Below are positions 1-38,496 of a stretch of 64,000 nucleotides of DNA, piece after piece; position 1 is the first letter of the stretch; each line of letters begins with the position of its first letter. The notes beneath the pieces were generated by a model that was given only the letters and a program-made list of their open reading frames with translations, was not told the origin of the DNA and made no database searches. The stretch comes from Tsukamurella asaccharolytica (GTDB lineage: Bacteria; Actinomycetota; Actinomycetes; Mycobacteriales; Mycobacteriaceae). Made by a program: the position numbers and the translations under genes. The stretch spans positions 1 through 64,000 of the forward strand of contig NZ_VIGW01000003.1 of the NCBI RefSeq assembly GCF_007858435.1, read 5' to 3'.

Positions 1-329
1 GTACCGGCCCCGAGCGCGCGCAGGTAGGCGTCGGCGTGCCGCACCGAGGCGATCCAGCCCTCGGCGGCGTCGGGAAGGCCCGCGGCGCCCGCGGAATCGC
101 CGGTGCCGAGGTAGTCGAAGCGGAGCGCGGCGAAGCCGTCCGCGGCGAGCAGCGCGGCGAGACGCCGCAGCCCGCGCAGCGCGTCGTACTGCTCCTTCGC
201 GAGCGGCGGCACCAGCAGCACGGTGCCCCGGACGCGGCGCGACGCGGGGAGGTGCAGCGCGCCGTACAGGGGCGCGTCCGCGGGCCCGAAGTACGTCCGC
301 TGCTCGAGCGGCGGCTCAGTCGAGTGCAT
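1..329 (-). CDS. alpha/beta hydrolase, N-terminal 109 residues (cut by window edge)
   Basis: The frame opens at an ATG and runs off the left end of the window. The visible part has the start of an alpha/beta-hydrolase fold: a first strand ending in LLVPPLAKEQYD (oxyanion-hole region) and then a second strand FAALRFDYLGTGDSAG. This is the pattern of the serine aminopeptidase-like hydrolases that often sit in exopolysaccharide loci. The nucleophile elbow lies outside the window, so activity cannot be judged. Its start overlaps the end of the upstream glycosyltransferase by 14 bases, so it is probably the last visible gene of the minus-strand glycan operon. A role in trimming or modifying a glycan or acyl group is inference from context. 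Confidence 0.75.
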   Translation of the reverse strand, partial: MHSTEPPLEQRTYFGPADAPLYGALHLPASRRVRGTVLLVPPLAKEQYDALRGLRRLAALLAADGFAALRFDYLGTGDSAGAAGLPDAAEGWIASVRHADAYLRALGAG

Positions 330-1311
330 CGATGATCTCCTTCGCCCGGTCCGCGTAGGTGTTCCGGCCCCGGGTGATCGCGGCGTGGCCGGCGGCGGCG
401 ATGCGCGCCGCGGCCGCCGGGTCGGCGCGGACCCGTGCGACGATGCCCTCGATCTCGGCCGGGTCGTCGTAGAGCAGCGCCTCCCGACCGTCGGCGAGCA
501 GCTCACCGTGCTCGACGGTCCGCGGGCCCACGAAGAGCCCGCCGGCAGCGGGGACCTCGAAGGTCCGGCAGGTGTGGGTGTCGCGGTTGTCCGAATTGAG
601 GAGCACCAGGTTCGCGTCCACCGCGCCGATCGCCCCGGAGAGCGCCGTGCCGTACTGCGGTCCGCGCACCGTCGCCCGGGTGCGCAGGAGGCCGGGCCGG
701 CGGCGCCACCCCGGCCCGGCCAGGTAGAAGTCCGGGCCGAGGCGAGCGGCCAGGTCCGTGACCAGCGCGGTCCGGTCGGGACGGGCGTTGCCGACGAACC
801 CGGCAGCGTACCGCCGGCCCGTGCGGGGGGCGACGGGCCGGTGCCAGTCGGGGTCGTAGGCGCTGCGCACGAAGACGGCGCGGCGCGCGCCCCGGGCGAG
901 CAGCTCGGGCACGTTGTGTCGCTTGGTGGTGACGATCGCGTCCCAGCCCGGCTCCGCCGCGAGGTACTCGGCGGTGGTGTTGACGGGGTTGGCGACGTCG
1001 TCGGCGCTGTAGTGCACGCGCCGTCCCGCCGGGAGGTTCAGCAGGCGCTCCTGGTCCAGGTGCACGGCGGTGTAGCAGAACAGCAGGTCGGCGCGCGCGT
1101 GGGCCTCCAGGTTCCGGTGCACCGCGTCGACGGTGCGCGGCGCGCGGCGCCCGGTGCGCTTGGCGTACCACCACGCCGCGCCGCCGCGGCGGGGGAGCGT
1201 GACCGCGGTCGTGTCGACGACGGTCACGTCGTGCCCCGCGCGACGGAAGCCCTCCGCGAGCGAGCGCGCGTTGCTGCCGTACCAGTCGTCGCCGGCGAAC
1301 AGGATCCTCAT
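316..1311 (-). CDS. CgeB-like glycosyltransferase
   Basis: The product is 331 residues with a GT-B look. It begins with the Rossmann strand MRILFAGDDWYGSNARSLAEG, and its C-terminal part matches the CgeB-type 'glycosyl transferases group 1' domain, with [16 protein letters not shown] followed by a glycogen-phosphorylase-like helix ending RNTYADRAKEII. The sugar donor cannot be read from sequence. The ATG overlaps the stop of the flippase gene by 4 bases (ATGA), so translation is coupled. An upstream in-frame extension exists but lies inside the flippase gene and is rejected. It probably adds a sugar during surface-glycan assembly on the cytoplasmic side of the membrane. Confidence 0.85.
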   Translation of the reverse strand: MRILFAGDDWYGSNARSLAEGFRRAGHDVTVVDTTAVTLPRRGGAAWWYAKRTGRRAPRTVDAVHRNLEAHARADLLFCYTAVHLDQERLLNLPAGRRVHYSADDVANPVNTTAEYLAAEPGWDAIVTTKRHNVPELLARGARRAVFVRSAYDPDWHRPVAPRTGRRYAAGFVGNARPDRTALVTDLAARLGPDFYLAGPGWRRRPGLLRTRATVRGPQYGTALSGAIGAVDANLVLLNSDNRDTHTCRTFEVPAAGGLFVGPRTVEHGELLADGREALLYDDPAEIEGIVARVRADPAAAARIAAAGHAAITRGRNTYADRAKEIIDALD

Positions 1312-2540
1312 GCCGCGCCTCCCGGCGCCGCGACCGCCGCCTCCAAGCGCCGGGCCCGCAGGACGGAAAAGAGTGCGGCCGCGGTCTGCGCCGCGACGAT
1401 CCCGATCACGACGGTCCGCGGGTCGTGCGTGCGCGCCGCCACCGCGAGCGTGACGGCGATGACCGCCGCGCCCACACCGCCGGCGAGCAGCACGCCCCGC
1501 GCGTCGCCCAGCACCGGCAGGACCGCGGTGGCGACGAAGGAGGTGACCGCGAGTCCCGGCAGCGCCCACGCCTGCATCTGCAGGAGGGGGACCGCGCCGT
1601 CGAACTCCGCGCCGAAGATCAGCGGCACCAGCCAGGGGGCGAGCGCCGTCGCGGCCGCGGCAAGCGCGGCGCCCCCGGCCGCGACCAGCGCGATGGCCCG
1701 GCGCGTGGTGGCCCAGAAGGCGTCGGTGTCGCGGCGCGCCAGCCGCGGGAGCAGGCTCACGCCGACGGCGTCGAGCAGCGAGCCCGCGGCCTGCACGGGC
1801 CGATCGCTCGCGCTGAACAGGCCGAGCGCGTGCGGAGTCAGCGTCGGCGCGAAGACCGTGGCGGCGGCGGGGCCGTACGAGGAGGAGAGCAGCCTTGCCG
1901 TGCACACGGGGCCGCCGGTCCGCAGCAGCTCGGTGGGCGGCCCGGGGCGCGCGGGCAGGCCGTGGGTCCGGAGCGTGCGCGCCCATGACCACCCGACCGC
2001 GACGAGATTTCCCGCGAGGAGGGCCGCCATCGCGGCCTCCGGCGTCCGCGCCGGCGGCAGCAGCACCAGCAGCAGAGCGAGGTAGACGACGCGGCCCGCG
2101 GTCTGTTGCACCACCACGGCCCCGAACCGGCCGGTGCCGAGCAGCACCCAGTCGTCACCGCATGCGCCGACGGATCCCACCACGAGGCCCAGCGCGCCCA
2201 TCTCGACGGCGCGCGGCACCGGCAGCGCCACCGCCAGCAGGAACAGCGCGGTGAACGCGAGGAGCGCCGCGGCGCGGAGACCGGCGTAGTCGCCCCGCAG
2301 CCGGGCGAGGCCCGGCTTCTCCGCGCGGGCCGCGACGAAGGCGGTGATGCCCAGGTCGGTGCACAGCGCCCCCACGAAGTAGGTCGCCATCGCGATCGCG
2401 AGCAGGCCCATCCCGGCGGGGCCGAGCAGCCGCGCGCAGAGCGGGATCGTGACGAGCGTGACCGCGTACTGCCCGTACCGGCCCGCCGAGACGAGGACCA
2501 CGTCCCGCAGCACCCCCGCGGAGCCGCGGAGCGGCGTCAT
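1308..2540 (-). CDS. Wzx-like polysaccharide/lipid-linked oligosaccharide flippase
   Basis: This 410-residue protein is almost entirely hydrophobic, with about twelve predicted membrane segments separated by short charged loops (for example RYGQYAVTLVTIPLCARLLG near the N-terminus). That is the layout and length of the MOP-superfamily polysaccharide exporters. The family moves undecaprenyl-linked glycan units across the plasma membrane. The ATG overlaps the upstream glycosyltransferase stop by 4 bases and the gene's own stop overlaps the next start by 4 bases, so it is translated in tight coupling with three or more glycosyltransferases. The substrate is presumably the glycan made by this cluster. 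Confidence 0.85.
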   Translation of the reverse strand: MTPLRGSAGVLRDVVLVSAGRYGQYAVTLVTIPLCARLLGPAGMGLLAIAMATYFVGALCTDLGITAFVAARAEKPGLARLRGDYAGLRAAALLAFTALFLLAVALPVPRAVEMGALGLVVGSVGACGDDWVLLGTGRFGAVVVQQTAGRVVYLALLLVLLPPARTPEAAMAALLAGNLVAVGWSWARTLRTHGLPARPGPPTELLRTGGPVCTARLLSSSYGPAAATVFAPTLTPHALGLFSASDRPVQAAGSLLDAVGVSLLPRLARRDTDAFWATTRRAIALVAAGGAALAAAATALAPWLVPLIFGAEFDGAVPLLQMQAWALPGLAVTSFVATAVLPVLGDARGVLLAGGVGAAVIAVTLAVAARTHDPRTVVIGIVAAQTAAALFSVLRARRLEAAVAAPGGAA

Positions 2541-3676
2541 CGAACGTCCCGCGCCACCCGGGCCAGGAGGGACTCCGCGATCGCCCCGGAGGTCTTGAGA
2601 TCCAGGTCGCGACCGCGGTCGGCGGCGGCCGCGCTGAGCTGCTCGCGCTGCTCCCAGTCGTCGATGAGCGTGTCGAGCGCGATCGCCAGCAGGTCCGGCC
2701 GCCGGGGCGGCACCAGCACGCCGGTCTTCCCGTCGTCGATGAGCTCCGTCGGGCCGCCGGCCCCGGCGGCGACGACCACCCGGCCCGCGGCCATGGCCTC
2801 GGCGACGACCTGCCCGAAGGGCTCGGTGAGCCGCGAGTAATGCACCACGACGTCCGCGTCCGCGGCCTCGGTGATCGGGTCCGTCACGTGCCCGGTGAAG
2901 GTCACCCGGTCCGCGATGTCCAGGCGTTCGGCGAGTTCCTCCAGTTCGGCGAGGTAGCCGTCGTCGTCGCCGAAGTGCGTGCCGCCCACGAACCGCACCT
3001 CGGGCACCGCCTCCATCTGCGCGAGCGCGCGCAGCAGCAGGTCCTGACCCTTCCACGCCGTGATCCGGCCGATCATCGCGATCTTGACGTGCTTCGGTGC
3101 GCGCTGGGGCGCGGGCGCCGGAACGGTGCTGAGGTCGACGCCCGGAGGGCACACTGCGGTGGGGCTGCCGCCGGTGGAGATGGTGCGCAGCGTGCCGCGC
3201 GAGTTCGCGAGGTAGCCGGACGCGACCATCCGGCCGAGCAGCCGCAGCGGGAAGCGCGTGCGGCCGAAGTACTCCGCGCTGACCCGGTCGTGCACCTGCC
3301 ACACCAGCGGAATACCCGTGCGGCGCGCGGCGACGGCGCCCACGAGCAGGGACTTGGTCGACTCGGCGACCACGACGTCGGCGTCGTGCGCGCGCAGCAG
3401 CGGCGCGAGGCGCCGGCCCGTGCGGTACAGATCGACCGCGCCGCGGAGCAGCGCCAACGGTCCGGCGTCGCGCCGCACCGACGACGGCCGGCCGGGGACG
3501 ACGGTGACCGGCACCTCCGCGGCCTCGAGGACGTCGGTGAGCGGGCCGGGGGCGAGCAGCATGACCGAGGCGGGCACGCCGCGCCGGCGCAGTTCCCTGG
3601 CGAGTCGGGCGAAGGCCAGCTCCGCACCCGAGGGCGCGGCGGTGTGCCCGAGGAAGACGGGACGGCGGGCCCTCAC
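2537..3676 (-). CDS. GT4-family glycosyltransferase
   Basis: The 379-residue product has the two Rossmann domains of GT-B enzymes. The donor half carries KIAMIGRITAWKGQDLLLRAL (about residue 205) and the E-x7-E signature in EPFGQVVAEAMAAGRVVV, followed by GGPTELIDDGKTGVLV. This is the standard retaining GT4 layout. The GTG start was chosen because it overlaps the preceding gene's stop by 4 bases (GTGA). Longer in-frame readings run into that gene. The family uses nucleotide sugars such as UDP-GlcNAc or GDP-mannose, and the exact donor is unknown. It is part of the minus-strand glycan operon. Confidence 0.88.
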   Translation of the reverse strand: MRARRPVFLGHTAAPSGAELAFARLARELRRRGVPASVMLLAPGPLTDVLEAAEVPVTVVPGRPSSVRRDAGPLALLRGAVDLYRTGRRLAPLLRAHDADVVVAESTKSLLVGAVAARRTGIPLVWQVHDRVSAEYFGRTRFPLRLLGRMVASGYLANSRGTLRTISTGGSPTAVCPPGVDLSTVPAPAPQRAPKHVKIAMIGRITAWKGQDLLLRALAQMEAVPEVRFVGGTHFGDDDGYLAELEELAERLDIADRVTFTGHVTDPITEAADADVVVHYSRLTEPFGQVVAEAMAAGRVVVAAGAGGPTELIDDGKTGVLVPPRRPDLLAIALDTLIDDWEQREQLSAAAADRGRDLDLKTSGAIAESLLARVARDVR

Positions 3677-4737
3677 GCGACGACCTCCCGGTACAGGGCG
3701 GCGTGCCGCGCGGCGGCGAGGTCCCACCCGAAGCGCTCGGCGTGCGCGCGGCAGGCCTGGGGGGAGGGACGCGCGCCGTCGAGCGCCGCGGCCAGCCGGT
3801 CCGCGAGCGCCTCCGCGTCGCCCGCGCCGACGACGAGGCCGGGGTCGAGGTCGCGGACGGCGTCGGGCAGGCCGCCGACGTCGGTGACCACGGGTGCCCG
3901 GCCCGACGCGAGCGACTCGAGGGCGACGAGCCCGAAGCCCTCCCAGGCGCGCGACGGGACCGCCGTCACGGTGGCGGCGGCGTATCTGCGCGCGAGGCTC
4001 GCGTCGTCGATCGTTCCCACGAAGGTCACAGTATCGGTGATCCCGAGCTCCGCTGCGCGGCCACGCAGATCGCCGCGCTGCGCGCCGTCGCCCACCACGT
4101 CGAGCCGGGCCTGCGGATGCCGCGCCAGCACCGCGGGCCACGCCTGCAACAGCACGTCGATGCCCATGCGGCGCTCGAGGCGGCGCACGCACAGCACCCG
4201 GGGCGGACCGTCGGGGACGGGCGTGGCGGTGAACCGCGCGAGGTCGACGCCGGGCGGGATCACGGCGATCGCGCCGCGATCCGCGCCGTACCGCGCGACG
4301 AGGACGTCGGCGAAGGCCCGCGAGAGAACCACGAAGCGGTCGCTCTCGCGGTAACGGGCGCGTTCGACGAGCGCCTTGACGGCGACGGCGGCGCGGCCCT
4401 CGCCCGCGGCGGCGCTCTCCTGCGCCCACGGCCCGTGGAAGTGCGTGACCAGGGCGGCGCCGCGGGGCGCGGGGCCGAACAGCGCGAAGTGCCGGTCGAG
4501 GACGGCGGTGTCCTTCGGAGCGGCTCGACGGGACGCTCGCACCCGGGCGGCCGTGCACCCGGCGTCGGCGCCCCAGCTGTGGCCCCCGGTGGCGGGTTCG
4601 CCGAAGGCCGCGGCACTGGGGGCGACGTCGTCGCGCTCGCGCAGGGCCGCGAACAGGTCCGCGAAGTAGCGGGGGAGTCCGCCGGGCGTGGTGCCCGGCC
4701 AGGTGGTCCCGGTCAGGTGGACGGGGACCGCGGTCAC
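3673..4737 (-). CDS. GT4-family glycosyltransferase
   Basis: The 354-residue product starts MTAVPVHLTGTTWPGTTPGGLPRY, with a glycine-rich acceptor-site loop. The donor domain has RVLCVRRLERRMGIDVLLQAW, a strand GTIDDASLARRYAAA, and the E-x7-E motif EGFGLVALESLASGRAPVV. It is a second GT4 enzyme, clearly different from its downstream neighbour, so the glycan needs several linkages. The GTG start overlaps the stop of the amino acid:carrier protein ligase gene by 4 bases (GTGA). This coupling places carrier-protein chemistry and glycan assembly in one transcript. The donor sugar is unknown. Confidence 0.88.
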   Translation of the reverse strand: MTAVPVHLTGTTWPGTTPGGLPRYFADLFAALRERDDVAPSAAAFGEPATGGHSWGADAGCTAARVRASRRAAPKDTAVLDRHFALFGPAPRGAALVTHFHGPWAQESAAAGEGRAAVAVKALVERARYRESDRFVVLSRAFADVLVARYGADRGAIAVIPPGVDLARFTATPVPDGPPRVLCVRRLERRMGIDVLLQAWPAVLARHPQARLDVVGDGAQRGDLRGRAAELGITDTVTFVGTIDDASLARRYAAATVTAVPSRAWEGFGLVALESLASGRAPVVTDVGGLPDAVRDLDPGLVVGAGDAEALADRLAAALDGARPSPQACRAHAERFGWDLAAARHAALYREVVA

Positions 4738-5687
4738 AGCTGCGCGTTGACGGATCCGGGCCAGGCCGCGCGGTCCAGGCCGTGCGTCGCCAGCAGCGCC
4801 AGCGCCACCCGCTCGATGCCGAAGCCGAGGCACGCGCTGTGCGCGGGCGCGCCGTCCACGGTGGTGATGTCGAACTGCACCCCGAAATGATCCCGGTGAT
4901 AGTTGCTGGACGCGACGGCGACCCCCGGCATGTCGTCGCCGTACATCGGCACGTGGAGCTCGGTCTTGAGATTCTCCGCCGACTGGTTCGCGGCCAGCAT
5001 GCGCCCGGCGCGGCCGAAGAAGGGGTCGGTCGCGGGGGTCCGCCGCACCTGGAGGCCGAGGTCGGAGAGCAGGTCGGCGGCGCGGGCGACCCAGGTGTCG
5101 CGATGCGCGACCGCGGCCCGGTCCGAGCCGACGCGGACGATCTCCCGCATGCGGAAGCTCTGCAGCCGCGCGGGATCCGCCGAGGGCTCGCGGCGGAAGC
5201 AGTGGCCGGAGACGTCGACCCAGGCACCGTCGCGGGGCAGCTGCCCGCTCAGTACGGGGTAAACCGAGTGGCAGGCCGACGGGACGAGCGCGACGTCGCT
5301 CGTGTGGAAGTGGCCGCCCCAGTCGTGGCCGGCGTCGCGGCCTGCGAGGAGGAGGCGGTGCTCGGCGTCGCCGCCGGTGTAATCCGACACCGTGGCGGCG
5401 AGCTGGGGAAAGGACGCGATGTAGTCGTTCCGGTCGAGATACTCGCGGGGCATCACCGGGGGGAAGGAGAGCACGGTGGCGGCGCCGCCGTGCACGTCGC
5501 GCACCGTCGCGCCGACGAGGGCCTCGATCGCTGCGGTCAGGTCCGCGAACGCGCCGCCGTGCCCGTACACGCCGTCCACGCCCGAGGGCAGGAGCAGGCC
5601 CGCATCGAAGAGGGAGGCACGGAACTTCTCCTGGCGCGCGTGCAGGTCAGTAAAGTCGATCGCACGGGGTGCTTCGGCCTGCGTCAT
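4734..5687 (-). CDS. amino acid--[acyl-carrier-protein] ligase (seryl-tRNA-synthetase-like)
   Basis: The 317-residue protein resembles a class II aminoacyl-tRNA synthetase catalytic core without the tRNA-binding arm. Motif 2 is FRMREIVRVG (residues 178-187) and motif 3 is CLGFGIERVALALL (286-299). Cys139, Glu182 and Cys286 match the Cys-Glu-Cys zinc site known for the Bradyrhizobium amino acid:carrier protein ligases, which adenylate a small amino acid and load it on a phosphopantetheine arm instead of tRNA. A carrier protein gene lies divergently 140 bases away, as in the known systems. The ATG used here has GGAGAAG 6 bases upstream; two farther ATG codons at 5702 and 5720 lack this. It heads a glycosyltransferase/flippase operon. 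The amino acid loaded (glycine or alanine in known enzymes) cannot be read here. Confidence 0.9.
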   Translation of the reverse strand: MTQAEAPRAIDFTDLHARQEKFRASLFDAGLLLPSGVDGVYGHGGAFADLTAAIEALVGATVRDVHGGAATVLSFPPVMPREYLDRNDYIASFPQLAATVSDYTGGDAEHRLLLAGRDAGHDWGGHFHTSDVALVPSACHSVYPVLSGQLPRDGAWVDVSGHCFRREPSADPARLQSFRMREIVRVGSDRAAVAHRDTWVARAADLLSDLGLQVRRTPATDPFFGRAGRMLAANQSAENLKTELHVPMYGDDMPGVAVASSNYHRDHFGVQFDITTVDGAPAHSACLGFGIERVALALLATHGLDRAAWPGSVNAQL

Positions 5688-5826
5688 CGGTCTCTTCTCC
5701 ATGGCTGGAACCGTTGTCACTGCAACACGTTACCAGGGCTAGGGTGTACGGAAGAGGCTTGAGAGTCGTGACTGCAAAGTCGTCTCGTGGCCGATTCGGG
5801 GTCCGGATGCGACGGAGGCGGGAGGC
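5688..5826. promoter_or_regulatory. divergent promoter region between ligase and carrier protein genes
   Basis: This gap separates two divergently read genes whose products should act together, so it probably holds both promoters. Around 5707-5729 there is a loosely symmetric stretch with AAC, TTG, CAA and GTT blocks (core TTGTCACTGCAA) that could bind a shared regulator. No regulator gene is seen nearby, and no binding protein can be named. Confidence 0.4.
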
Positions 5827-6066
5827 GTGGTGGACGAGGTGATTCGCGCGATCGTGGCGGCGCACGGCAGGTTGACCAGGCCGATCGCGGACATTGCCGG
5901 TGGTGACGATCTGTATGCGCTGGGTCTCACCTCGCACGCGGCAGTGAACATCATGCTCGCTGTCGAAGATCGATTCACTATCGAGTTCCCGGATTCGGCG
6001 ATGAACAAGACAACCTTCGGAACCTTGGATTCACTCGCGGCGACGGTCCGCGAGCTGACCGCCTGA
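5827..6066 (+). CDS. small acyl/aminoacyl carrier protein
   Basis: The 79-residue acidic helical protein has the phosphopantetheine attachment region DDLYALGLTSHAAVNIML, with Ser36 as the expected modified residue (LTSH in place of the usual DSL). Length and pattern fit free-standing carrier proteins. The divergent synthetase-like ligase is its likely loading enzyme, and the AcpS-type transferase one gene downstream its likely activator. GTG at 5827 is used; a second GTG directly follows, and GGGAGGC just upstream suits either. Only 7 bases separate it from the next glycosyltransferase gene. What the loaded amino acid is transferred to is unknown, and the free-standing condensation-domain protein in this cluster is the best candidate partner. 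Confidence 0.88.
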   Translation: MVDEVIRAIVAAHGRLTRPIADIAGGDDLYALGLTSHAAVNIMLAVEDRFTIEFPDSAMNKTTFGTLDSLAATVRELTA

Positions 6067-6073
6067 GCCGCCG

Positions 6074-7180
6074 GTGACCCGCATCGCCGTCGTCCACGAG
6101 CGGTGGACCGAACAGGGCGGCTCCGAGAACGTCGCGCGAGCCCTCGTCGACGCCTGGCCCGGCGCCCGCCTGCACGTCGCCTTCGCCGACCCGCGCGCCG
6201 TCCCCGCGGAGCTCCGCGACCGGATCGCCGTCACCGGACTCGACGCCGTGCACCGCGCACTCGGCCGCCGCTCGCACGCCCCGCTGATCCCGCTCTCCGC
6301 CGCCACGTGGCGCCGGTACCGCGCCGTCCCCGGGGCCGACGCCGTCGTCATCAGCCACCACGCCACGGCCGTCTCCGCCGCACGGTCCTGGCCCGGCGCC
6401 GCGGTGGTCGCCTACGTCCACTCGCCGGCCCGCTGGGCGTGGGCGCCCGAGCTGCGCTCGGGTGAGGCGTACGGCGCCGCCGGCCGGCTCGCCCTCGCGG
6501 CGCTCGCGGCGCGGACCCGGGCCGTCGAGACCGCCGCGGTACCCCACCTCGACGTCGTCGTCGCCAACTCGACCGCCGTCGCGCGACGCATCGAGCGCTG
6601 GTGGGGCGTCGCGGCGGAGGTGGTCGCCCCGCCGGTCGACGTCGCGCGGTTCACGCCGGACGGTGCCACTGCGGGGGACTACTTCCTGGTCGCCGGGCGG
6701 CTCGTGCCCTACCGCCGCGTGGACCTGGCGATCCGCGCCGCCCAGCGCGCCGGGGTGCGCCTCGTCGTCGCCGGCGACGGACGACACGAGGCCGCCCTGC
6801 GGCGCATCGCGGGCGCCGAGACTGTCTTCCTCGGCCGCGTCTCGGACGCGGAGATGGTGCGCCTGCAGCGCGCGGCGATCGCCACCGTCATGCCCGGCGA
6901 GGAGGATTTCGGCATCGTGCCGGTGGAGGCCATGGCGACCGGCACCCCCGTCCTCGCCCGCGCGGCGGGCGGGGCGCTCGACACCGTGATCCCCGGGCTC
7001 TCCGGGGTGCTCGTGCCCGACGGGCCGGACGAGGATTTCACGGCTGCGCTCGCCGCGGCGATGCGGGACGTGCGGCCGGCCGATTTCGACCGCGTCGCGC
7101 TCCGTGCTCACGCCGAGCGGTTCTCGGTGGCCGCCTTCCGGGACCGGATGCGCGCGATCGTCGCCGAGGCCGTCAGGTGA
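6074..7180 (+). CDS. GT4-family glycosyltransferase
   Basis: The 368-residue protein opens with RIAVVHERWTEQGGSENVA, the glycine-rich acceptor loop typical of GT4 mannosyl- or rhamnosyl-type transferases. The motif HSPARWAWAPELR lies mid-protein, the donor domain has YFLVAGRLVPYRRVDLAIRAA, and the E-x7-E region reads EDFGIVPVEAMATGTPVLA. It starts at GTG 7 bases after the carrier protein stop and its end overlaps the AcpS gene by 4 bases, so carrier protein, sugar transferase and activating enzyme form one operon. This arrangement is the strongest sign that the carrier protein serves glycan modification. The donor sugar is unknown. Confidence 0.88.
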   Translation: MTRIAVVHERWTEQGGSENVARALVDAWPGARLHVAFADPRAVPAELRDRIAVTGLDAVHRALGRRSHAPLIPLSAATWRRYRAVPGADAVVISHHATAVSAARSWPGAAVVAYVHSPARWAWAPELRSGEAYGAAGRLALAALAARTRAVETAAVPHLDVVVANSTAVARRIERWWGVAAEVVAPPVDVARFTPDGATAGDYFLVAGRLVPYRRVDLAIRAAQRAGVRLVVAGDGRHEAALRRIAGAETVFLGRVSDAEMVRLQRAAIATVMPGEEDFGIVPVEAMATGTPVLARAAGGALDTVIPGLSGVLVPDGPDEDFTAALAAAMRDVRPADFDRVALRAHAERFSVAAFRDRMRAIVAEAVR

Positions 7181-7560
7181 ACCGGGTGGGGATCGACATC
7201 GCCGAGGTGGCGCGCGTCGAGGAGTCCCTGGCGCTCTTCGGGCCACGATTCACGACGCGGGTCTTCACGTCGCGGGAGATCGACGACTGCGCCGGCGACG
7301 CACGCCGCCTGACCGCACGCTGGGCCGCGAAGGAGGCCGCGGTCAAGGCGCTGCGCCTCGGGCCAGACGTGCCGACCCCGCCCCGCGAGGCCGAGGTGGT
7401 CGGGACGCCGCACGGGCCGGAACTACGGCTGCACGGCGGCCTCGCGGCGCACGCGCGCCGGCAGGGCTGGATCCGCGCGGAACTGTCCCTCACGCACACG
7501 GACGCGTCCGCCGCCGCCGTGGTGCTCGCCGAGCTCGCGGAACCGGACCCGGGCCGTTAG
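7177..7560 (+). CDS. AcpS-type 4'-phosphopantetheinyl transferase
   Basis: The 127-residue protein has the family's two metal/CoA motifs, GIDIAEVARVEE (Asp7) and RWAAKEAAVKAL (Glu53, Lys52), and a C-terminal LSLTHTDASAAAVVLAE strand. It moves phosphopantetheine from CoA to the serine of a carrier protein. The GTG start overlaps the glycosyltransferase stop (GTGA). Its position suggests a dedicated role with the nearby carrier protein, although it could be the cell's general AcpS, and a second copy elsewhere cannot be excluded. Its stop overlaps the convergent phosphotransferase stop by 4 bases, which leaves no room for a separate terminator. Confidence 0.9.
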   Translation: MNRVGIDIAEVARVEESLALFGPRFTTRVFTSREIDDCAGDARRLTARWAAKEAAVKALRLGPDVPTPPREAEVVGTPHGPELRLHGGLAAHARRQGWIRAELSLTHTDASAAAVVLAELAEPDPGR

Positions 7561-8927
7561 CGGCCGCCGCGGCCGAAGAGCACCGTGCCCACCGAGATCA
7601 GCAGGATCTTCGTGTCGAGCCACAGGCTCCAGTTCTCGATGTAGTAGTTGTCGTACGAGGCCCGGTCCCGGATGTCGGTGTCGCCGCGCAGCCCGTGGAT
7701 CGCGGCCCAGCCGGTGAGTCCCACCATCACCCGGTGGCGGGACTGATAGGCGGGGATCTCCGCGCCGAAGCGGTTCGCGAAGTGCGGCCGTTCGGGTCGC
7801 GGGCCGACCACGGACATGTCGCCGCGCACCACGTTCCACAGCTGCGGCAGCTCGTCGATGGAATGGCGCCGTAGGAACCTGCCGAGGCGCGTGATGCGGA
7901 GCTGCTCGTCGGTCCAGTCGCGATCCGACTCCTCGTCGGGCACGGGCCGCATGGTGCGGAACTTGTAGAGCGAGAACAGGCGCCCGTCCTGCCCGACGCG
8001 CGTCTGCCGGAAGAGGATCGGCGCGTTCGGCTCCTGGATCTTGATCGCCACCGCCACCAGGAGTAGCAGCGGCGACAGCAGCACCAGGCCGAGGCTCGAG
8101 GTCAGGAGCGAGGTGACGCGCTTGACCCGCCAGTGGCTCGTACGCAGGGCCAGGCGCCGCACCAGCACCAGCGGCGTGGTGTGGATCCGGTCCATGTCCC
8201 GGTCCTGGTGCACGAACTCGTAGAGCCGCGGAACCACGTAGATCTCACAGTCGAGGGTGTCGCACTCGCGGAGCGGCTCGACGAGCGTGGCATCCCGATC
8301 GCGGGAGAACGCCACGATGACGGTGGCGATCTCCCGCTCGCGGATCAGGCCCGCCAGATCCCGCTGGCGGGGGATCACCTCCACCGGAAAGGCGGTCGCG
8401 TCGAGGGGGTCGTCATCCATCACCAGGACCGGACGCAGCCCGTACTCCGGGAACTCGATCATCGAGTGCACGAGGTCGCCGGCGACCTTGCCGCCGCCGA
8501 TCACCAGGGTTCGGCCACCGCGCTCCGGATGCCGGGCGCGGTTGCGCCGGACCGCCCCGTAGTAGAGCACCCGCACAGCGAACAACACCACCCAGCACAC
8601 CACGGCGCCGATCAGGTGGGAGTGGTCGTGCTGCCAGACCGTGATGACGCCGAGGGGTGCGAGCATCCACCCTGCGATCGCCAGCTGCGGCACCGAATCG
8701 AGGGCGCTCAGCGTGACCCGCGTGCGGTACAGCCCGAACAGGTAGAAGACGCTCACGGTGGCCGCGCCGCCGATGACGCCCTCGATCGCATGACTGAGAT
8801 GGGAGGTCGAGGAGTTGTTGGTCACCGCCAGGAACATGGAGACCACGATGAAGTCGAGGAGCGCGAGCACCCACGAGTGGCGGCGCATGCGACGGCCGCT
8901 CCCGGCGGGCGCGTCTTTCGTTGCCAT
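7557..8927 (-). CDS. polyprenyl-phosphate sugar-1-phosphate transferase (WbaP/WcaJ-like)
   Basis: The 456-residue membrane protein has four N-terminal membrane helices, a Rossmann-like middle (RTLVIGGGKVAGDLVH), one more helix, and the C-terminal bacterial sugar transferase domain with LFSLYKFRTM, IDELPQLWNVVRGDMSVVGPRPE and a membrane anchor. The family puts the first sugar phosphate on undecaprenyl phosphate and so starts a glycan repeat unit. The ATG at 8927 was chosen because GGGGAG lies 5 bases upstream; an in-frame start 17 codons earlier lacks such a site. It presumably starts the glycan on which the neighbouring glycosyltransferases act. The sugar is unknown. Confidence 0.92.
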   Translation of the reverse strand: MATKDAPAGSGRRMRRHSWVLALLDFIVVSMFLAVTNNSSTSHLSHAIEGVIGGAATVSVFYLFGLYRTRVTLSALDSVPQLAIAGWMLAPLGVITVWQHDHSHLIGAVVCWVVLFAVRVLYYGAVRRNRARHPERGGRTLVIGGGKVAGDLVHSMIEFPEYGLRPVLVMDDDPLDATAFPVEVIPRQRDLAGLIREREIATVIVAFSRDRDATLVEPLRECDTLDCEIYVVPRLYEFVHQDRDMDRIHTTPLVLVRRLALRTSHWRVKRVTSLLTSSLGLVLLSPLLLLVAVAIKIQEPNAPILFRQTRVGQDGRLFSLYKFRTMRPVPDEESDRDWTDEQLRITRLGRFLRRHSIDELPQLWNVVRGDMSVVGPRPERPHFANRFGAEIPAYQSRHRVMVGLTGWAAIHGLRGDTDIRDRASYDNYYIENWSLWLDTKILLISVGTVLFGRGGR

Positions 8928-9038
8928 GTGCTCCCCGAATATTTCCGATCGTGCTCGCGTCAGTCGAATATAGGACACCTCGGCGTGGTGGCGACAACCA
9001 GCGCTGTCCCCGCCGCCGCCGCGCGTAGGGTGAGCGGC
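8928..9038. promoter_or_regulatory. divergent promoter region, phosphotransferase / condensation protein
   Basis: The gap holds two direct CGAATAT repeats, at 8936 and 8965. The second, read on the minus strand, gives TATATT, a good -10 element for the phosphotransferase gene with a leader of about 30 bases. No promoter elements for the plus-strand gene are clear. Confidence 0.4.
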
Positions 9039-10457
9039 GTGCAGCCCCTTCCGTCCCAGGTCGCGATGCTGCAGCTCGCCGCCCAGCGCCCCGGCTCACG
9101 GGCACTGGCTGTCGACGCGGCGTGGCGCACGGACCTCCCGATCGACACGAACGCGCTGGTACGGGCGGCGACCGCTGCGCTCGACGAAACCGAGGCGGCG
9201 GCGATCGGGGTGGTGATCGACGGCGCGGCCCGCTTCGTGCCCGCCGCCCGCGCACCCGTCGGAACGGAGTCCTTCCCCTCGGAGGAGCGATTCCGGACGT
9301 GGCGCGCCGCCGGCACCCTGCCGCTCGACGGCGGGCCCCTCGTCCGCGCCACGGTCGCGCGCATCGGGGCCGCGCACGCCGTCCGCCTGCTCGCCCACCA
9401 CGCCGTGCTCGACGGCTACGCCATCGCCCGCGTCTTCCGCCGGATCGTGGAACGGCTGCGCGCCGAGGCCGACGGTGCGCCGCTGCCGTACGAGCGCCGC
9501 GGCGACCTCGGCGCGCTCGCCGCCGCGGCCGCGCCGCTCCGCCCGCCCGCGCCCTCCTTCTGGTCCGCCGCGACCGACGGCGTGGGCGAACCGGGCCGCG
9601 AGATCGGCTTCTCCGACCGCGCCGCATCGCCGGCCGACGCCCCCCGGCAGGAGCGGGCACGGATCACCGTGCCGGGCATCGCGGGCCGCCGCGCGTGGCC
9701 GGGGGAGGCCGTCGGCATCGTCGCCGCGTACACCGCCCGGCACCTCGGCGCCGACGACGCTCGCGTGGGCGTCACCGCCTCCCTGCGCCGCACCGCGCTC
9801 GAGCGGGCCACTCCCACGCAGTGGATGGCCGTCGTGCCGGCCCGCCTCGCCGTGCCACCCGGCGTCACCCCCGCGGTCCTGGCGGCCGATCTCCAGCTCT
9901 GGCTCGCCGCAGCGTCCGAGCGCATCGCCCAGGGGGAGCGGCCCGAACAGCTCCTGACCGCGGTCCCCGCCGCGTGGCGCACCGGTCGCCTGTACGGGCC
10001 CATCGTCAACGTCCTGCCGGACGTGCGGGTCGAGGGCTGGTCGCTCGACGTCACCGCGTGGGGTCCGGTCGCGGACTGCCTGATCTCGGTGTATCCCGAG
10101 CCGGGCGACGAGCTCGTCGTCGACGGCGTCTTCCACCCGGCCGGCTACGATGCCGCGCGGGCCGCGGCGCACGTGGACGCGATCGCCGCTCTGCTCGGTA
10201 GGGCACTCCGCGCGCCGCACGTCCCGGTCCCCGATGTCCCTGCGCGGCCGGTGGATCCGGACCGGATCGCGGTGCCCGGCGGGTGGGCAGTGCCCGCCCG
10301 GATCCGGGACGCGCTGATCGCCGCCGGCTTCCCCGCCGACCGGATCGAACTGCGGACGGAACCGGCGGTCACCGTCGTGCTGCACGGCGCGGTCCTCGAG
10401 CGCCTGCCGGAGGCGCGGGCGGTGCTGCCTCCCGGGGTCCGCGTCCGGTGCGGCTGA
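9039..10457 (+). CDS. free-standing condensation-domain protein
   Basis: The 472-residue protein has the active-site motif HHAVLDG (residues 120-126) of nonribosomal-peptide condensation domains and PapA-type acyltransferases, a core matching the two-lobed fold, and an extra C-terminal stretch of about 60 residues after APHVPVPDVPARP. No adenylation or carrier domain is attached. Such enzymes join a carrier-bound acyl or aminoacyl group to an amine or hydroxyl acceptor. In this locus the carrier would be the 79-residue protein and the acceptor a glycan or lipid-linked sugar; that is inference. Start: GTG with AGGG 9 bases upstream; a GTG three codons earlier is also possible. A PapA-like lipid acyltransferase is the alternative reading. 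Confidence 0.8.
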   Translation: MQPLPSQVAMLQLAAQRPGSRALAVDAAWRTDLPIDTNALVRAATAALDETEAAAIGVVIDGAARFVPAARAPVGTESFPSEERFRTWRAAGTLPLDGGPLVRATVARIGAAHAVRLLAHHAVLDGYAIARVFRRIVERLRAEADGAPLPYERRGDLGALAAAAAPLRPPAPSFWSAATDGVGEPGREIGFSDRAASPADAPRQERARITVPGIAGRRAWPGEAVGIVAAYTARHLGADDARVGVTASLRRTALERATPTQWMAVVPARLAVPPGVTPAVLAADLQLWLAAASERIAQGERPEQLLTAVPAAWRTGRLYGPIVNVLPDVRVEGWSLDVTAWGPVADCLISVYPEPGDELVVDGVFHPAGYDAARAAAHVDAIAALLGRALRAPHVPVPDVPARPVDPDRIAVPGGWAVPARIRDALIAAGFPADRIELRTEPAVTVVLHGAVLERLPEARAVLPPGVRVRCG

Positions 10458-30636: not shown

Positions 30637-31676
30637 CCGACCAGCTGACCGCCACGGCGCCGGCCCCGGCTTCCGCCGCGGACGACGAGGTACGCGCCGC
30701 GCTCGACCGTCGCGCTGCGGCACCGCCCCGCGTTCCGCTGTGGGGCACGGCCTCCGCCGGCGCCTGGATCGTGGCGGCAGTGCTGGTCTTGGCGGTGCCG
30801 GACACGACCCGCTTCCGGGTGGACGCGACCACCGCGTTCGGCATCGTCCTCGCGGTGGTAGCGGCCGTGATCGCCGTAGCCGCGGCCGTTTCGCTGCAGA
30901 GCGAGCGTACCCGCTCCGCCCTCAGTCGCAGGCTGCCGTGGGCGATCGCCGGCGCGGTCTGGATCGTGGTTTGGGAACTCTCGACGGCCAAGTCGGGCTG
31001 GCTGGCGCCGCCGTACTTCGCCGCACCGCAACAACTCCTGTACGAGGCGTTCAACGACCGCGGCATTCTGGCGCGGAGCCTGGGCAGCTCCCTGGTGCTC
31101 CTGGCCACGGGCTTCCTGATCGGTCTGATCGTGGGCATCGCCACCGGCGTTCTCATCGGTTGGAGCGAACGCGCCGACTACTGGGTGCATCCGGCACTGC
31201 TGTACCTCGGTCCGGTGCCCGCGATCGCGTGGATCCCGATCGTGTTCGTCGCGGCGCCCACCAGTTTCCTCGGCGCGGTGTTCCTCATCGCCCTTACCGT
31301 GTGGTTCCCGGTGACGCTACTGACCCGTGCGGGAGTCGTATCCACGCCCCGAGCCTTCTATGACGTGGCGCAGACCCTCGGCGCCGACACCCGTTTCCTG
31401 GTGACCCGGATCAGCCTGCCGTCGGCGCTGCCGAGCATCTTCACCGGTGCCTTCATGGGACTGGGTATGTCGTTCGCGACGCTGACCGTGGCGGAGAACT
31501 TCGGGGTGAACGCCGGGCTCGGCTGGTACATCAACTGGAAGAAGGGCTGGAGCGCGTATCCGGCCATGTATGCGGCGATCCTGATCATGGTGTTGTTCTG
31601 CGGCGGTCTGCTGATAGCGCTGCTGAGGACCCGCGATCGCGTCTTGCGCTGGCAGAAGGACTTGACACGATGGTAG
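30633..31676 (+). CDS. ABC transporter permease (SsuC-like)
   Basis: The 347-residue protein has an extra N-terminal pair of membrane helices, then the standard permease core of about six helices with the EAA-loop region VAQTLGADTRFLVTRISLPSALPSIF, which contacts the ATPase. It starts at a GTG overlapping the binding-protein stop (GTGA). With its neighbours it makes one importer. The two additional N-terminal helices are not typical for SsuC and could serve a partner protein. Confidence 0.88.
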   Translation: MTDQLTATAPAPASAADDEVRAALDRRAAAPPRVPLWGTASAGAWIVAAVLVLAVPDTTRFRVDATTAFGIVLAVVAAVIAVAAAVSLQSERTRSALSRRLPWAIAGAVWIVVWELSTAKSGWLAPPYFAAPQQLLYEAFNDRGILARSLGSSLVLLATGFLIGLIVGIATGVLIGWSERADYWVHPALLYLGPVPAIAWIPIVFVAAPTSFLGAVFLIALTVWFPVTLLTRAGVVSTPRAFYDVAQTLGADTRFLVTRISLPSALPSIFTGAFMGLGMSFATLTVAENFGVNAGLGWYINWKKGWSAYPAMYAAILIMVLFCGGLLIALLRTRDRVLRWQKDLTRW

Positions 31677-32425
31677 CGGCACTCGACATCCTCTCCGTGA
31701 CCCACGGCTACCGTACGGGCAGGACCGATCTCACGGTTCTCGACGACGTCTCACTCTCGGCGCGGCCCGGTGAGTTCGTCGCACTCCTCGGACCGTCGGG
31801 TTCCGGGAAATCGACGCTGCTTCGGCTGATCGCCGGACTGGAGCTGCCGTTGGTCGGGTCGGTGTTCGTGGACGGAGAGCCCGTTCGGGGGCCGCACCCG
31901 TCGCGCGCGCTCATGTTCCAGGACCCGACGCTGCTGCCGTGGCGCACGGTCCGCCAGAACGTGGAACTCGGCCCTGACGCTCGGCATAGCGCCGACCCCG
32001 AGGGTGTGTCCGCGGCGCTGGATCGCGTCGGGCTCGCAGACTTCGCCGACGCCCTTCCTGCCCGCCTGTCGGGCGGGATGGCGCAGCGGGCCGCGCTGGC
32101 ACGGGCACTGGTCGGCGCGCCGAGCCTGCTCCTTCTCGACGAGCCGCTCGGGAAGCTCGACGCGCTGACCCGCTCCCTCCTGCAATCCGAGCTCGAATCC
32201 GTTTGGCAGCACAACGGATTCACCACGATCCTGGTGACCCACGACGTGGATGAGGCGTTGCGCCTGGCGCAGCGGATCGTGGTCTTCGGACCTCGCCCGG
32301 CTCGCGTGATCGCGGAGTTCGACAATCCGCTCCCTCGTCCCCGTGTCTTCGATCATCCGGACTTCCTTGCCCTGCGCCGCCGTGTGATCGATGCACTCTC
32401 CCTCACAACAACGGAAGCCTCATGA
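31670..32425 (+). CDS. ABC transporter ATP-binding protein (SsuB/TauB-like)
   Basis: The 251-residue ATPase shows Walker A GPSGSGKST, the Q-loop MFQDPTLLPWRTV, signature LSGGMAQR, Walker B LLLLDEP and the H-loop VTHDVDEAL. It is closest in layout to the nitrate/sulfonate/taurine importers and powers the adjoining permease. Its start overlaps the permease end by 7 bases and its stop overlaps the YcnI-like gene by 4 bases. Confidence 0.92.
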   Translation: MVAALDILSVTHGYRTGRTDLTVLDDVSLSARPGEFVALLGPSGSGKSTLLRLIAGLELPLVGSVFVDGEPVRGPHPSRALMFQDPTLLPWRTVRQNVELGPDARHSADPEGVSAALDRVGLADFADALPARLSGGMAQRAALARALVGAPSLLLLDEPLGKLDALTRSLLQSELESVWQHNGFTTILVTHDVDEALRLAQRIVVFGPRPARVIAEFDNPLPRPRVFDHPDFLALRRRVIDALSLTTTEAS

Positions 32426-33114
32426 ACCCCCGCACTCGCCTTCTCGCCGTCATGCTCCTGGCGCTCTTCCCGCTGGCTCTCGCCCCCTACGCCGGCGCGC
32501 ACATCACGGTCTCGGCCCCCGGAGCCGTAGCGGGGCGACCCGCCACGATCGAGGTACGGGTTCCGACTGAATCCGGCACCGCCTCAACGGTCACCGTGCG
32601 CATCCAACTACCCGCCGAATTGGCGGGCGGAGCGACGGCCACCGCTCCGGCGGGGTGGCGCGTCGAACGATCCGACGTCACGGTCACCTGGATCGCCACT
32701 GCGGGCGGCGCTCCGGCACACCAGGCCGCCGTGTTCACCGTCGCGGTCGACCGCCTCCCGGCGGGAACGTTCCACTTCCCGGCCGTTCAGACGTACTCCG
32801 ACGGCACCGTCGCGTCCTGGACCGAGCGCGGTGCCCCCGGACTGGAACTGGAACACCCCGCACCGACCCTCACCGTCGGCGGACCGGCCGACGCGGGCCA
32901 GCCCACACCGGCGGCAAACCCCACGACGACGGTGACGGCGACGGCGTCTGCTGGGTCGCCGGCGGCGTCACCAACTGCGACACCGGCCGCGTCACCGACT
33001 GCGGCGCAGACGGACGAGGCGAGCAGCGGAACACTCTGGTGGGTAGTGGGTGCCGTCGCGATCCTGGTCGCCGCGATCGGCGTGGCCGTAGCCATCCGAC
33101 GCAGGAGGAACTGA
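32422..33114 (+). CDS. YcnI-like (DUF1775) copper-associated envelope protein
   Basis: The 230-residue protein has a signal peptide ending ALAPYAGA, followed at once by His (HITVSAPGAVAGRPATIEVRVPTE). In YcnI this mature N-terminal His is a copper ligand. The domain continues with TAPAGWRVERSDVTVTWIA and HFPAVQTYSDGTVASWTERG. A Thr/Ala/Pro linker leads to a single membrane helix (LWWVVGAVAILVAAIGVAVA) and a basic RRRRN tail inside. YcnI-type proteins are thought to bind Cu(II) outside the membrane and often sit beside CopCD, as here. The ATG overlaps the ATPase stop (ATGA). Confidence 0.87.
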   Translation: MNPRTRLLAVMLLALFPLALAPYAGAHITVSAPGAVAGRPATIEVRVPTESGTASTVTVRIQLPAELAGGATATAPAGWRVERSDVTVTWIATAGGAPAHQAAVFTVAVDRLPAGTFHFPAVQTYSDGTVASWTERGAPGLELEHPAPTLTVGGPADAGQPTPAANPTTTVTATASAGSPAASPTATPAASPTAAQTDEASSGTLWWVVGAVAILVAAIGVAVAIRRRRN

Positions 33115-33115
33115 C

Positions 33116-34585: not shown

Positions 34586-34603
34586 ACTAGTACGACTGGT
34601 CTA
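34583..34603. promoter_or_regulatory. orphan TetR-type operator palindrome
   Basis: Arms TAGACTAGT and ACTGGTCTA (one mismatch) flank ACG. This is the look of operators bound by TetR regulators of MFS exporters. No TetR gene or intact MFS gene follows; only an MFS tail survives at 35122-35262. The site is probably left over from a lost regulator-exporter pair. It overlaps the copCD stop codon. Confidence 0.55.
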
Positions 34604-34840
34604 TTCAGAGCCCCGGCCGCCCGGCCGCACGGAGGAAGCGGGCGGAGACGCCCCAGGTCGTAGCCGTGCTACAGCGAGCTGAGCGGATCTCGTGCGCGAG
34701 GAGAGCCGCAGGGGATCATGCATCCAGTGCAATTATGACGGTTCCATATGTCATAATGTAGATTATCGGCGAATCGTGGGAGGTCCGGTCGGCCTAGGTC
34801 GATGCCGAGGTTCTTCTCGGTTGTCCGTTCTCGCTCTTCA

Positions 34841-35067
34841 TGACGCATTCTCGGTCGAGTTGACGCATCCGCGTGGTCGCTCTCAACTTCTTGACGCATC
34901 TGGTGTGTAGATCTCAGATTGGTGACGTAGCCACCACCGGCGTGTCCACACGGCTGTGAGGGTCGTTTGATCTACGTGCGATGCATACAGGTGCTGCCAG
35001 GCCCCGACCTCTCTGGTTTGATGCGTGCCCGGACCCGCAATCCGCGATTCTGTCACTGTGACGTATT
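34841..35067 (+). repeat. array of TGACGYA motifs with partial 31-base period
   Basis: TGACGCAT occurs at 34841, 34861 and 34892, TGACGTAG at 34923 and TGACGTAT at 35059. The steps from 34861 to 34892 and from 34892 to 34923 are both exactly 31 bases. Several short repeats near one end are typical of IS21-family termini, so this could be a transposon end whose genes are gone; a multi-site regulator target is the alternative. No istA or istB fragment is seen. Confidence 0.5.
35043..35063 (+). repeat. island-flanking direct repeat, left copy
   Basis: This 21-base sequence recurs with one mismatch at 39143-39163 in the same direction. It contains TGTCACTGTGACG, itself an inverted repeat (GTCAC-T-GTGAC). 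The bases upstream of the two copies are also loosely alike (CTCTCTGGTTTG and CTCCCTGGTTGG). The copies are about 4.1 kb apart. Confidence 0.65.
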
Positions 35068-35121
35068 TTCAGTCAGAGGGGTTCCGCGTTCGCCATGCAG
35101 TTCGGTGTCGGCCCGCTGTGC

Positions 35122-35262
35122 TCAGGCCTTCGCCAACTGCACGCCCGTCGGCATGAACTGGCGTCCAGGAAGGGCGACTAGTCCGGCGAGGGCGGCTGCG
35201 AAGCAGAGAACGGCGACTACGACACAGGCGGTCGTCAGGCCGGCGAGGAACGACTCGCGCAC
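35122..35262 (-). pseudogene. C-terminal remnant of an MFS (EmrB/QacA-like) transporter
   Basis: The frame encodes VRESFLAGLTTACVVVAVLC followed by FAAALAGLVALPGRQF and a short hydrophilic end, the last membrane helix and tail typical of DHA2 exporters. Only about 46 codons are left. It lies in the same frame directly after the stop of the dehalogenase-like gene, so a recombination joint must fall at about 35265. Together with the orphan TetR operator it suggests a lost exporter locus. Confidence 0.65.
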
Positions 35263-35265
35263 GGG

Positions 35266-36153: not shown

Positions 36154-36173
36154 GGTCCTCTCCATCAGGTAGG

Positions 36174-36208
36174 CTTGAGATTTTCAAGTCATTCTAGGAA
36201 AGTCAAGT
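36174..36208. promoter_or_regulatory. candidate HxlR operator between divergent genes
   Basis: CTTGA and TCAAG form an inverted repeat with a 5-base spacer (36174-36188), and TCAAGT recurs at 36203, 19 bases after its first copy. The site lies between the dehalogenase-like gene and the HxlR gene, where an autoregulating repressor would bind. Confidence 0.5.
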
Positions 36209-38492: not shown

Positions 38493-38496
38493 AGGT

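What the first reader, a model, noticed from the sequence alone, without database searches (positions are those of the whole stretch)
4734..10457. Carrier-protein-dependent aminoacylation module embedded in a glycan assembly locus
The sequence shows a seryl-tRNA-synthetase-like ligase with class II motifs 2 and 3 and the Cys-Glu-Cys zinc site, a divergent 79-residue carrier protein, an AcpS-type transferase one gene on, a free-standing condensation-domain protein with HHxxxDG, four glycosyltransferases, a flippase and a polyprenyl sugar phosphotransferase. Known amino acid:carrier protein ligases load glycine or alanine on small carrier proteins, but the next step of the pathway has been unclear. 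Here the 4-base overlaps tie the ligase to glycosyltransferases and the carrier protein to another glycosyltransferase and AcpS. The inference is a pathway that activates an amino acid, moves it by the condensation enzyme onto a lipid-linked sugar, and flips the product out: an aminoacylated surface glycan.
Basis: partly seen in the sequence, partly recalled or inferred. Interest (0 to 1): 0.88.

Follow-up and report, generated by a model that had tools for sequence, protein, structure and literature searches.

The report
Carrier-protein amino-acid module in glycan locus
A Tsukamurella surface-sugar gene cluster carries its own enzyme and carrier protein for activating an amino acid, plus a leftover piece of a peptide-making machine, which suggests that the cell decorates an exported sugar with an amino acid.

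Summary
[quoted passage not shown] In 9 of 10 ligase genomes that I chose, one of only 1-3 PST genes lies 35-3041 bases from the ligase; in a wider public set PST is near in 10 of 59 loci. The general idea is not new: a 2010 note in proof (PMC2922099) predicted that this system attaches an amino acid to a cell-surface sugar. New here is the variant. The usual acyl-CoA-dehydrogenase-like and DUF1839 genes are missing from the locus, DUF1839 from the whole genome. Instead, in 13 of 16 Tsukamurella genomes, a C protein lies 1.5-4.5 kb from a ligase. It resembles NRPS starter C domains more than PapA and probably keeps a vestige of an adenylation domain. Which enzyme moves the aminoacyl group, and whether the C protein uses it as donor or acceptor, is unresolved. 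No activity was tested.

The parts
1..329 (-). ABH2: N-terminal part of a tandem alpha/beta-hydrolase, cut by the contig start (another part is on contig C1)
   Evidence: frame scores 137 bits with the ABH2 profile; matched by its Tsukamurella orthologue, second part at G000:C1:102023-103216. The C-terminal half carries Cys-Asp-His in relatives. Start read from the sequence.
316..1311 (-). GT_a, glycosyltransferase (Glyco_trans_1_2)
   Evidence: PF13524 79 bits
1308..2540 (-). flippase of the Wzx type (Polysacc_synt)
   Evidence: PF13440 39 and PF01943 36 bits, both over cut-off (searched in a longer frame)
2537..3676 (-). GT_b, GT4-type glycosyltransferase
   Evidence: PF00534 112 bits
3673..4737 (-). 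GT_c, GT4-type glycosyltransferase; overlaps the ligase by 4 bases
   Evidence: PF00534 118 bits (searched in a longer frame)
4734..5702 (-). amino acid:carrier-protein ligase (SerRS-like, class II)
   Evidence: NF005479 394 bits, cut-off 357; PDB 4h2w/3mey; alignment
5827..6066 (+). aminoacyl carrier protein, 79 aa
   Evidence: NF005480 92.9 bits, cut-off 72; 4h2w_C and Atu2571
6074..7180 (+). GT_d, GT4-type glycosyltransferase
   Evidence: PF00534 84 bits
7177..7560 (+). AcpS-type phosphopantetheinyl transferase; overlaps GT_d by 4 bases
   Evidence: PF01648 54 bits; TIGR00556 61 bits, cut-off 45
7557..8927 (-). polyprenyl-phosphate sugar phosphotransferase (PST; EPS_sugtrans type)
   Evidence: TIGR03025 360 bits, cut-off 296; PF02397 213 bits
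9030..10457 (+). Free-standing condensation-domain protein with a C-terminal part (about residues 412-475) that is a probable remnant of an adenylation-domain small lobe; start codon uncertain
   Evidence: profile to NRPS C domains, model and fold comparison, HxxxDG in 15 of 15 other loci, dN/dS about 0.3

Best explanation
This is a carrier-protein-dependent aminoacylation arm of a polyprenyl-linked glycan pathway, in a form peculiar to Tsukamurella. AcpS puts phosphopantetheine on the 79-residue carrier. The SerRS-like ligase adenylates a small amino acid (glycine or alanine by analogy) and loads it on the carrier. PST and four glycosyltransferases build a short glycan on polyprenyl phosphate, and the flippase exports it. 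Before export the carrier-bound aminoacyl group, or an N-acylated form of it made by the C protein, is passed to the glycan. The two candidate transferases are the C protein and the tandem alpha/beta-hydrolase ABH2 with its conserved Cys-Asp-His. They stand where most other aa:CP ligase loci have an acyl-CoA-dehydrogenase-like protein and often DUF1839 (papain-like). Shown here: gene identities, linkage, conservation and the absence of DUF1839. Inferred: amino-acid identity, acceptor, transferase and order of steps.
For: Ligase and carrier pass their family models. PST lies 35-3041 bases from the ligase in 9 of 10 genomes that I chose, each with only 1-3 PST genes; chance is about 0.5% per genome at most, although the genomes are related and nine of them are Tsukamurella or one other genus. 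GT_c-GT_b-flippase-GT_a, in this order and on the ligase's strand, also lie by the ligase in Rhodococcoides (45-57% identity), with GH2 and DUF1839 in between and ACAD on the other side; GT_d, AcpS and PST recur in a Williamsia ligase locus (49-60%). So the glycan genes stay while the transfer genes change. C protein: orthologue in 13 of 16 Tsukamurella genomes, each 1.5-4.5 kb from a ligase. The one Tsukamurella genome with an unbroken ligase but no C orthologue (G306) has DUF1839, ACAD and GH2 at its ligase. Two Tsukamurella locus types whose ligases are 52% identical share eight genes (ligase, carrier, GT_d, C protein, GT_c, GT_b, flippase, GT_a); the sub-blocks carrier-GT_d and GT_c-GT_b-flippase-GT_a keep their order, but the whole is arranged differently. 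ABH2 follows GT_a directly in 8 of 8 window-type loci that run on past GT_a, and lies 2.0-2.4 kb beyond it in L140 of the other type. Beyond ABH2 none of the 7 genes searched in the window genome is a glycan gene.
Against: No product, acceptor or activity is known. Twelve of 59 well-flanked public loci show neither glycan-assembly genes nor the GH2-like gene within about 10 kb, and PST is near in only 10 of 59, although glycosyltransferases were sought only as relatives of those in the window and of three related clusters. Two of these loci with a whole ligase (L060, L091) have none of DUF1839, ABH2 or a C protein within reach. In G238 and G309 the module is split over two loci, one with a remnant or no carrier. 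The C protein evolves faster than its neighbours: 28% identity between locus types against 46-65% for the others. The locus has no polymerase; Wzy_C genes of this genome lie on other contigs, so the glycan's fate is unknown.
Confidence: 0.5

Rival explanations
1. The C protein is a starter-type C domain in trans: it condenses an acyl group (acyl-CoA or acyl-ACP) with the amino group of the aminoacyl-carrier protein, giving an N-acyl-aminoacyl thioester. ABH2 then hands this to the glycan. Ligase, carrier and C protein would be a split NRPS initiation module with a class II synthetase in place of the A domain.
Confidence: 0.25
2. ABH2 alone transfers the aminoacyl group, as it would have to in the Mycobacterium short loci, and the C protein is a bystander or acts on another pathway.
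For: Six Mycobacterium-type short loci (L032, L033, L034, L036, L067, L068; L033 and L067 are one genome) have ligase, carrier, AcpS, PST, ABH2 and glycosyltransferases but no C protein or DUF1839. The ABH2 Cys-Asp-His is invariant in 22 of 22 aligned; a GxC[SAT]G plus DH pattern is in 60 of 64, and two of the other four keep the Cys in a variant box.
Against: 13 of 13 C orthologues are linked to a ligase, under purifying selection against two relatives, with HxxxDG kept. ABH2 is absent within about 10 kb in 20 of 59 well-flanked loci, so it is not universal. Its nearest solved relatives in the lists are hydrolases, esterases, lipases and thioesterases, none a known glycan transferase.
Confidence: 0.15
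3. The module makes a soluble or lipid-borne aminoacyl metabolite and merely neighbours glycan genes.
For: Ligase loci without recognised glycan-assembly genes are common: 37 of 59, of which 25 have a GH2-like gene. C domains usually make small amides (recalled).
Against: PST linkage in 9 of 10 chosen genomes and the shared glycosyltransferase-flippase block in Tsukamurella and Rhodococcoides. Four-base overlaps of ligase with GT_c and of GT_d with AcpS.
Confidence: 0.1

Closest known systems
Amino acid:carrier protein ligase systems (Bll0957, Atu2573 with carrier Atu2571)
   Same: Same ligase family above the curated cut-off and same carrier family; carrier most like the one co-crystallised with the ligase
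   Different: The common order carrier-ACAD-ligase, often with DUF1839 and a GH2-like gene, is broken: no ACAD and no DUF1839 in the locus, no DUF1839 in the genome; a C protein is present instead
2010 prediction of a SerRS-based surface-sugar aminoacylation (PMC2922099, note added in proofs)
   Same: Amino acid activated by the SerRS-like enzyme on an ACP and ligated to a cell-surface sugar
   Different: That note predicts the tightly linked uncharacterised ORF (Atu2574 type) as the amide ligase; I take this to be DUF1839 from gene order (inference). It is absent here, where a C protein and ABH2 are found
NRPS starter condensation domains (ObiF1, CDA-C1, RzmA) and free-standing VibH
   Same: Sequence profile, fold, HxxxDG
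   Different: Free-standing, A domain reduced to a probable remnant, carrier and amino-acid activation supplied in trans by a class II synthetase homologue
D-alanylation of teichoic acids (Dlt; recalled)
   Same: A carrier-bound amino acid destined for a surface polymer
   Different: No DltA-type A domain or DltB match in the proteins searched; the carrier reaches only 18 bits against the DltC model, cut-off 68
Butirosin BtrH-type acyl transfer from ACP to aminoglycoside
   Same: Acyl group moved from a carrier to a sugar; papain-like fold as assigned to DUF1839 (PMC10318531, passages)
   Different: No DUF1839 or BtrH-type match in the Tsukamurella locus proteins searched

Membership tests
amino acid:carrier protein ligase | curated family model above cut-off | tested here: met
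   NF005479 394 bits against 357
amino acid:carrier protein ligase | class II motifs 2 and 3 and Cys-Glu-Cys site | tested here: met
   alignment; zinc role of these residues recalled
amino acid:carrier protein ligase | no N-terminal tRNA-binding domain | tested here: met
   322 aa; the match to the archaeal-type SerRS model covers query 138-320 on model 312-503 of 518
amino acid:carrier protein ligase | cognate carrier protein encoded nearby | tested here: met
amino acid:carrier protein ligase | adenylates Gly/Ala and loads the carrier, not tRNA | not testable with these tools
   needs an enzyme assay
canonical aa:CP operon (carrier-ACAD-ligase-DUF1839) | acyl-CoA-dehydrogenase-like gene next to the ligase | tested here: not met
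   absent in the window; present in 53 of 59 well-flanked named loci
canonical aa:CP operon (carrier-ACAD-ligase-DUF1839) | DUF1839 gene | tested here: not met
   no PF08893 match in G000
NRPS condensation domain superfamily | HHxxxDG catalytic motif | tested here: met
   HHAVLDG; HxxxDG in 15 of 15 other loci, three of them with DH in place of HH
NRPS condensation domain superfamily | profile and fold similarity to C domains | tested here: met
   the model has mean pLDDT 62.6 only
PapA-type acyltransferase | closest relatives are PapA proteins | tested here: inconclusive
Wzx/Wzy-type glycan locus | PST, glycosyltransferases and flippase | tested here: met
Wzx/Wzy-type glycan locus | polymerase (Wzy) in the locus | tested here: not met
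   the two Wzy_C matches of G000 lie on contigs C6 and C11, not on C31 or C1; in two Mycobacterium genomes the one match lies by the ligase
Dlt D-alanylation | DltA/DltB/DltC set | tested here: not met
   carrier 18 bits against DltC cut-off 68; no DltA or DltB match among the window proteins searched

The most novel reading that the evidence does not exclude
An NRPS initiation module has been taken apart and rewired for glycan decoration: its A domain decayed to a remnant lobe, a class II aminoacyl-tRNA-synthetase homologue now charges a stand-alone carrier, and the surviving C domain (with the Cys alpha/beta-hydrolase ABH2 as off-loading transferase) puts an aminoacyl or N-acyl-aminoacyl group on a polyprenyl-linked surface glycan, replacing the DUF1839 papain-like route of other bacteria.
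Probability: 0.3. Interest if true: 0.8.

Novelty: new variant of a known kind. Interest (0 to 1): 0.6.

Why it matters
[quoted passage not shown] The Tsukamurella locus is compact, has one defined set of glycan genes and lacks the usual extra enzymes, so it makes the question 'which sugar, which transferase' testable with a few deletions. If true, it would join synthetase-type amino-acid activation, an NRPS relic and glycan assembly in one pathway, and it would name a cysteine alpha/beta-hydrolase family as a candidate carrier-to-sugar transferase.

Tried and rejected
PapA-type lipid acyltransferase: not favoured; the C-protein profile finds NRPS C domains and no PapA chain, and PapA5 is lower in structure. 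Regular C-protein partnership across Mycobacteriales: rejected (only four candidates per genome were scored there). Carrier/GT_d overlap: there is a 7-base gap. A DUF1839 copy elsewhere in the genome: none found. Pfam alone misses the window C protein (E 0.14). The adenylation remnant by sequence alone is inconclusive (E 0.11). The six-row alignment seems to misplace the C-terminal part. tRNA genes and Rfam families in the window: none at the tools' thresholds. In VIA-align fewer than a fifth of the rows cover residues beyond 407, so the fold of the last 65 residues rests on six multi-domain entries. The ABH2 C-terminal part of the window genome has no Pfam match at E 0.001.

Literature: searches were made in open PubMed Central text. 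I saw listings, passages of PMC10318531, PMC2922099, PMC9437257 and PMC10888616, section 17 of PMC2922099 and section 12 of PMC9437257. PMC2922099 and PMC10318531 propose a glycan role; nothing else that I saw does. The 2010 and 2013 ligase papers (Mocibob) were not opened and are known to me only through citations and recall.

Counts: rows left out are L053, L143 and loci without a whole ligase from the tree (under 240 aa matched), and 21 of 80 named loci from the 59-locus count because a flank was under 9 kb. The broken frames of L053/L143 may be sequence errors, since KatG and the thioesterase beside them are broken too. L097 and L099 are short or cut stretches, so their lack of genes is not firm.

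Mended after a check of the calls: I had first written that the two Tsukamurella locus types keep one gene order; they share genes and sub-blocks, not the whole order.


Full report
What is there. The window starts at the end of a contig of a Tsukamurella genome (G000:C31; T. sputi and T. conjunctivitidis have ligases 89% identical). From left to right: an alpha/beta-hydrolase gene cut by the contig start (1-329, -), GT_a, a flippase, GT_b, GT_c and the aa:CP ligase (316-5702, all -); the carrier protein, GT_d and AcpS (5827-7560, +); the sugar phosphotransferase PST (7557-8927, -); and the C protein (9030-10457, +). Further right lie a methyltransferase, an LGFP-repeat protein, a thioesterase and KatG. 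The ligase passes its curated model (394 against 357 bits) and is closest in the PDB to the solved aa:CP ligase. The carrier passes its own model (92.9 against 72) and is closest to the aminoacyl carrier protein solved with that ligase. The 4-base overlaps are real for ligase/GT_c and GT_d/AcpS; the carrier and GT_d are 7 bases apart.

Neighbourhoods. One scan of public genomes kept the 80 best of 546 confirmed ligase loci, the pattern limit having been reached. Of the 59 with more than 9 kb on each side, a carrier gene is present in 59, an acyl-CoA-dehydrogenase-like gene (ACAD) in 53, DUF1839 in 40, a GH2-like glycosidase in 40, ABH2 in 39, AcpS in 22, a relative of the glycosyltransferases sought in 19, PST in 10 and the C protein in 1. 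Assembly genes (PST, glycosyltransferase, flippase or Wzy) occur in 22, the GH2-like gene alone in 25, neither in 12. The common order is carrier-ACAD-ligase, often with DUF1839, GH2 and ABH2. The window belongs to a short form without ACAD, DUF1839 and GH2, found in Tsukamurella, in several Mycobacterium and in two other loci, of which one (L097) is on a short contig. PF08893 (DUF1839) has no match in the window genome, nor in 6 of 7 other genomes tested; G067 has one. In the ligase tree (112 rows, some of them the same genome twice; quick method) the window sits in a clade of 15 Tsukamurella rows (SH-aLRT 100). A second Tsukamurella type of 3 rows also has 100. The Mycobacterium short forms lie among long forms elsewhere, so on this tree the short form arose more than once.

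Coupling to the glycan. I chose ten ligase genomes (five Tsukamurella, four of one other genus that includes Mycobacterium sp. GA-0227b, and G067); they have only 1-3 PST genes each. In 9 of them one lies 35-3041 bases from the ligase; G067 is the exception at 20 kb. Chance would be about 0.5% per genome at most, though the genomes are related. In the wider public set PST is near in 10 of 59 only. The genes GT_c-GT_b-flippase-GT_a have the same order, on the ligase's strand, in the window, in the second Tsukamurella type (52-65% identity) and in Rhodococcoides (45-57%), where GH2 and DUF1839 lie between them and the ligase. GT_d, AcpS and PST recur in a Williamsia ligase locus (49-60%). So the glycan genes persist while the amino-acid-handling genes change. 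This is the strongest argument that the module serves the glycan.

ABH2. The gene cut at the window start has its other part on contig C1. Its family is a tandem alpha/beta-hydrolase like the exosortase-A-associated hydrolases 1 and 2, below those models' cut-offs. At the N-terminal elbow 18 of 22 aligned sequences have Arg and 4 Gly, none Ser or Cys. The C-terminal half has Cys420, Asp527 and His560 in 22 of 22. A GxC[SAT]G plus DH pattern is found in 60 of 64 long copies; of the other four, two keep the Cys, one is cut and one (L035) lacks it. The model is good (mean pLDDT 85.7) and resembles esterases, lipases and some thioesterases. A cysteine nucleophile suits thioester-to-acceptor transfer, but that is inference.

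Borders. Beyond ABH2 seven genes searched in the window genome are ordinary (DUF4407, flotillin-like, MarR, flavodoxin, antiporter, dehydrogenase, amino acid permease). The locus has no Wzy_C gene; the two in this genome lie on contigs C6 and C11, which also hold the other two PST genes, while in two Mycobacterium genomes the single Wzy_C gene lies about 8-9 kb from the ligase. The Tsukamurella product may therefore be a short oligosaccharide, or use a polymerase from elsewhere.

Mechanism. The ligase role on the carrier follows from family membership. That the aminoacyl group goes to the glycan follows from linkage. The transferring enzyme is open: the C protein could take the aminoacyl-carrier as donor (as VibH takes an aryl carrier, recalled) or as acceptor (as starter C domains do, recalled), with ABH2 off-loading the product.

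Prior art. [quoted passage not shown] PMC10318531 (passages) places DUF1839 in the papain-like fold and suggests glycan processing at the cell wall. PMC9437257 (passages and section 12) says the role is unknown. The Tsukamurella variant, its C protein and the ABH2 triad are not in anything I saw in searches.

Noticed in passing
L037 and L141 (genomes G238 and G309): These genomes carry two ligase loci. The one at the KatG-side site keeps PST and ligase but shows only a carrier remnant (L037) or no carrier hit (L141), and no AcpS, C protein or glycosyltransferase relatives; carrier, GTs and C protein sit with a second ligase elsewhere (L038, L140).
   Followed up: partly
L047-L050: A divergent ligase group in other families of the order forms its own clade (SH-aLRT 100) with different conserved neighbours, a weak carrier-like frame about 2 kb away in three of four, and no ACAD, DUF1839, ABH2 or PST hit within reach; possibly another pathway.
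   Followed up: no
L038:7818-9469: A glutathionylspermidine-synthase-like ATP-grasp gene and a DUF350 membrane gene end a few bases before the second-type Tsukamurella ligase; L078 has clustered counterparts.
   Followed up: no
L144:1-6441: A Tsukamurella-assigned contig carries the long-form operon (GH2, DUF1839, carrier, ACAD, ligase, ABH2); its ligase groups with Gordonia asplenii (SH-aLRT 86), so it may be misbinned or transferred.
   Followed up: partly
L032 and related loci L033, L034, L067, L068: Mycobacterium short-form loci hold a Wzy_C protein (Pfam run on L032) and a conserved protein of about 320 aa (c18) without a Pfam match beside the glycan genes.
   Followed up: partly
window 5827-6066: The carrier also matches the cispentacin carrier AmcB model weakly (23.6 bits, cut-off 80) and the PDB entry 6m01 putative ACP (E 4e-7).
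   Followed up: no
window about 31670-42307: Several gene candidates here have lower third-position GC (0.77-0.87) than most of the window, perhaps a younger region.
   Followed up: no
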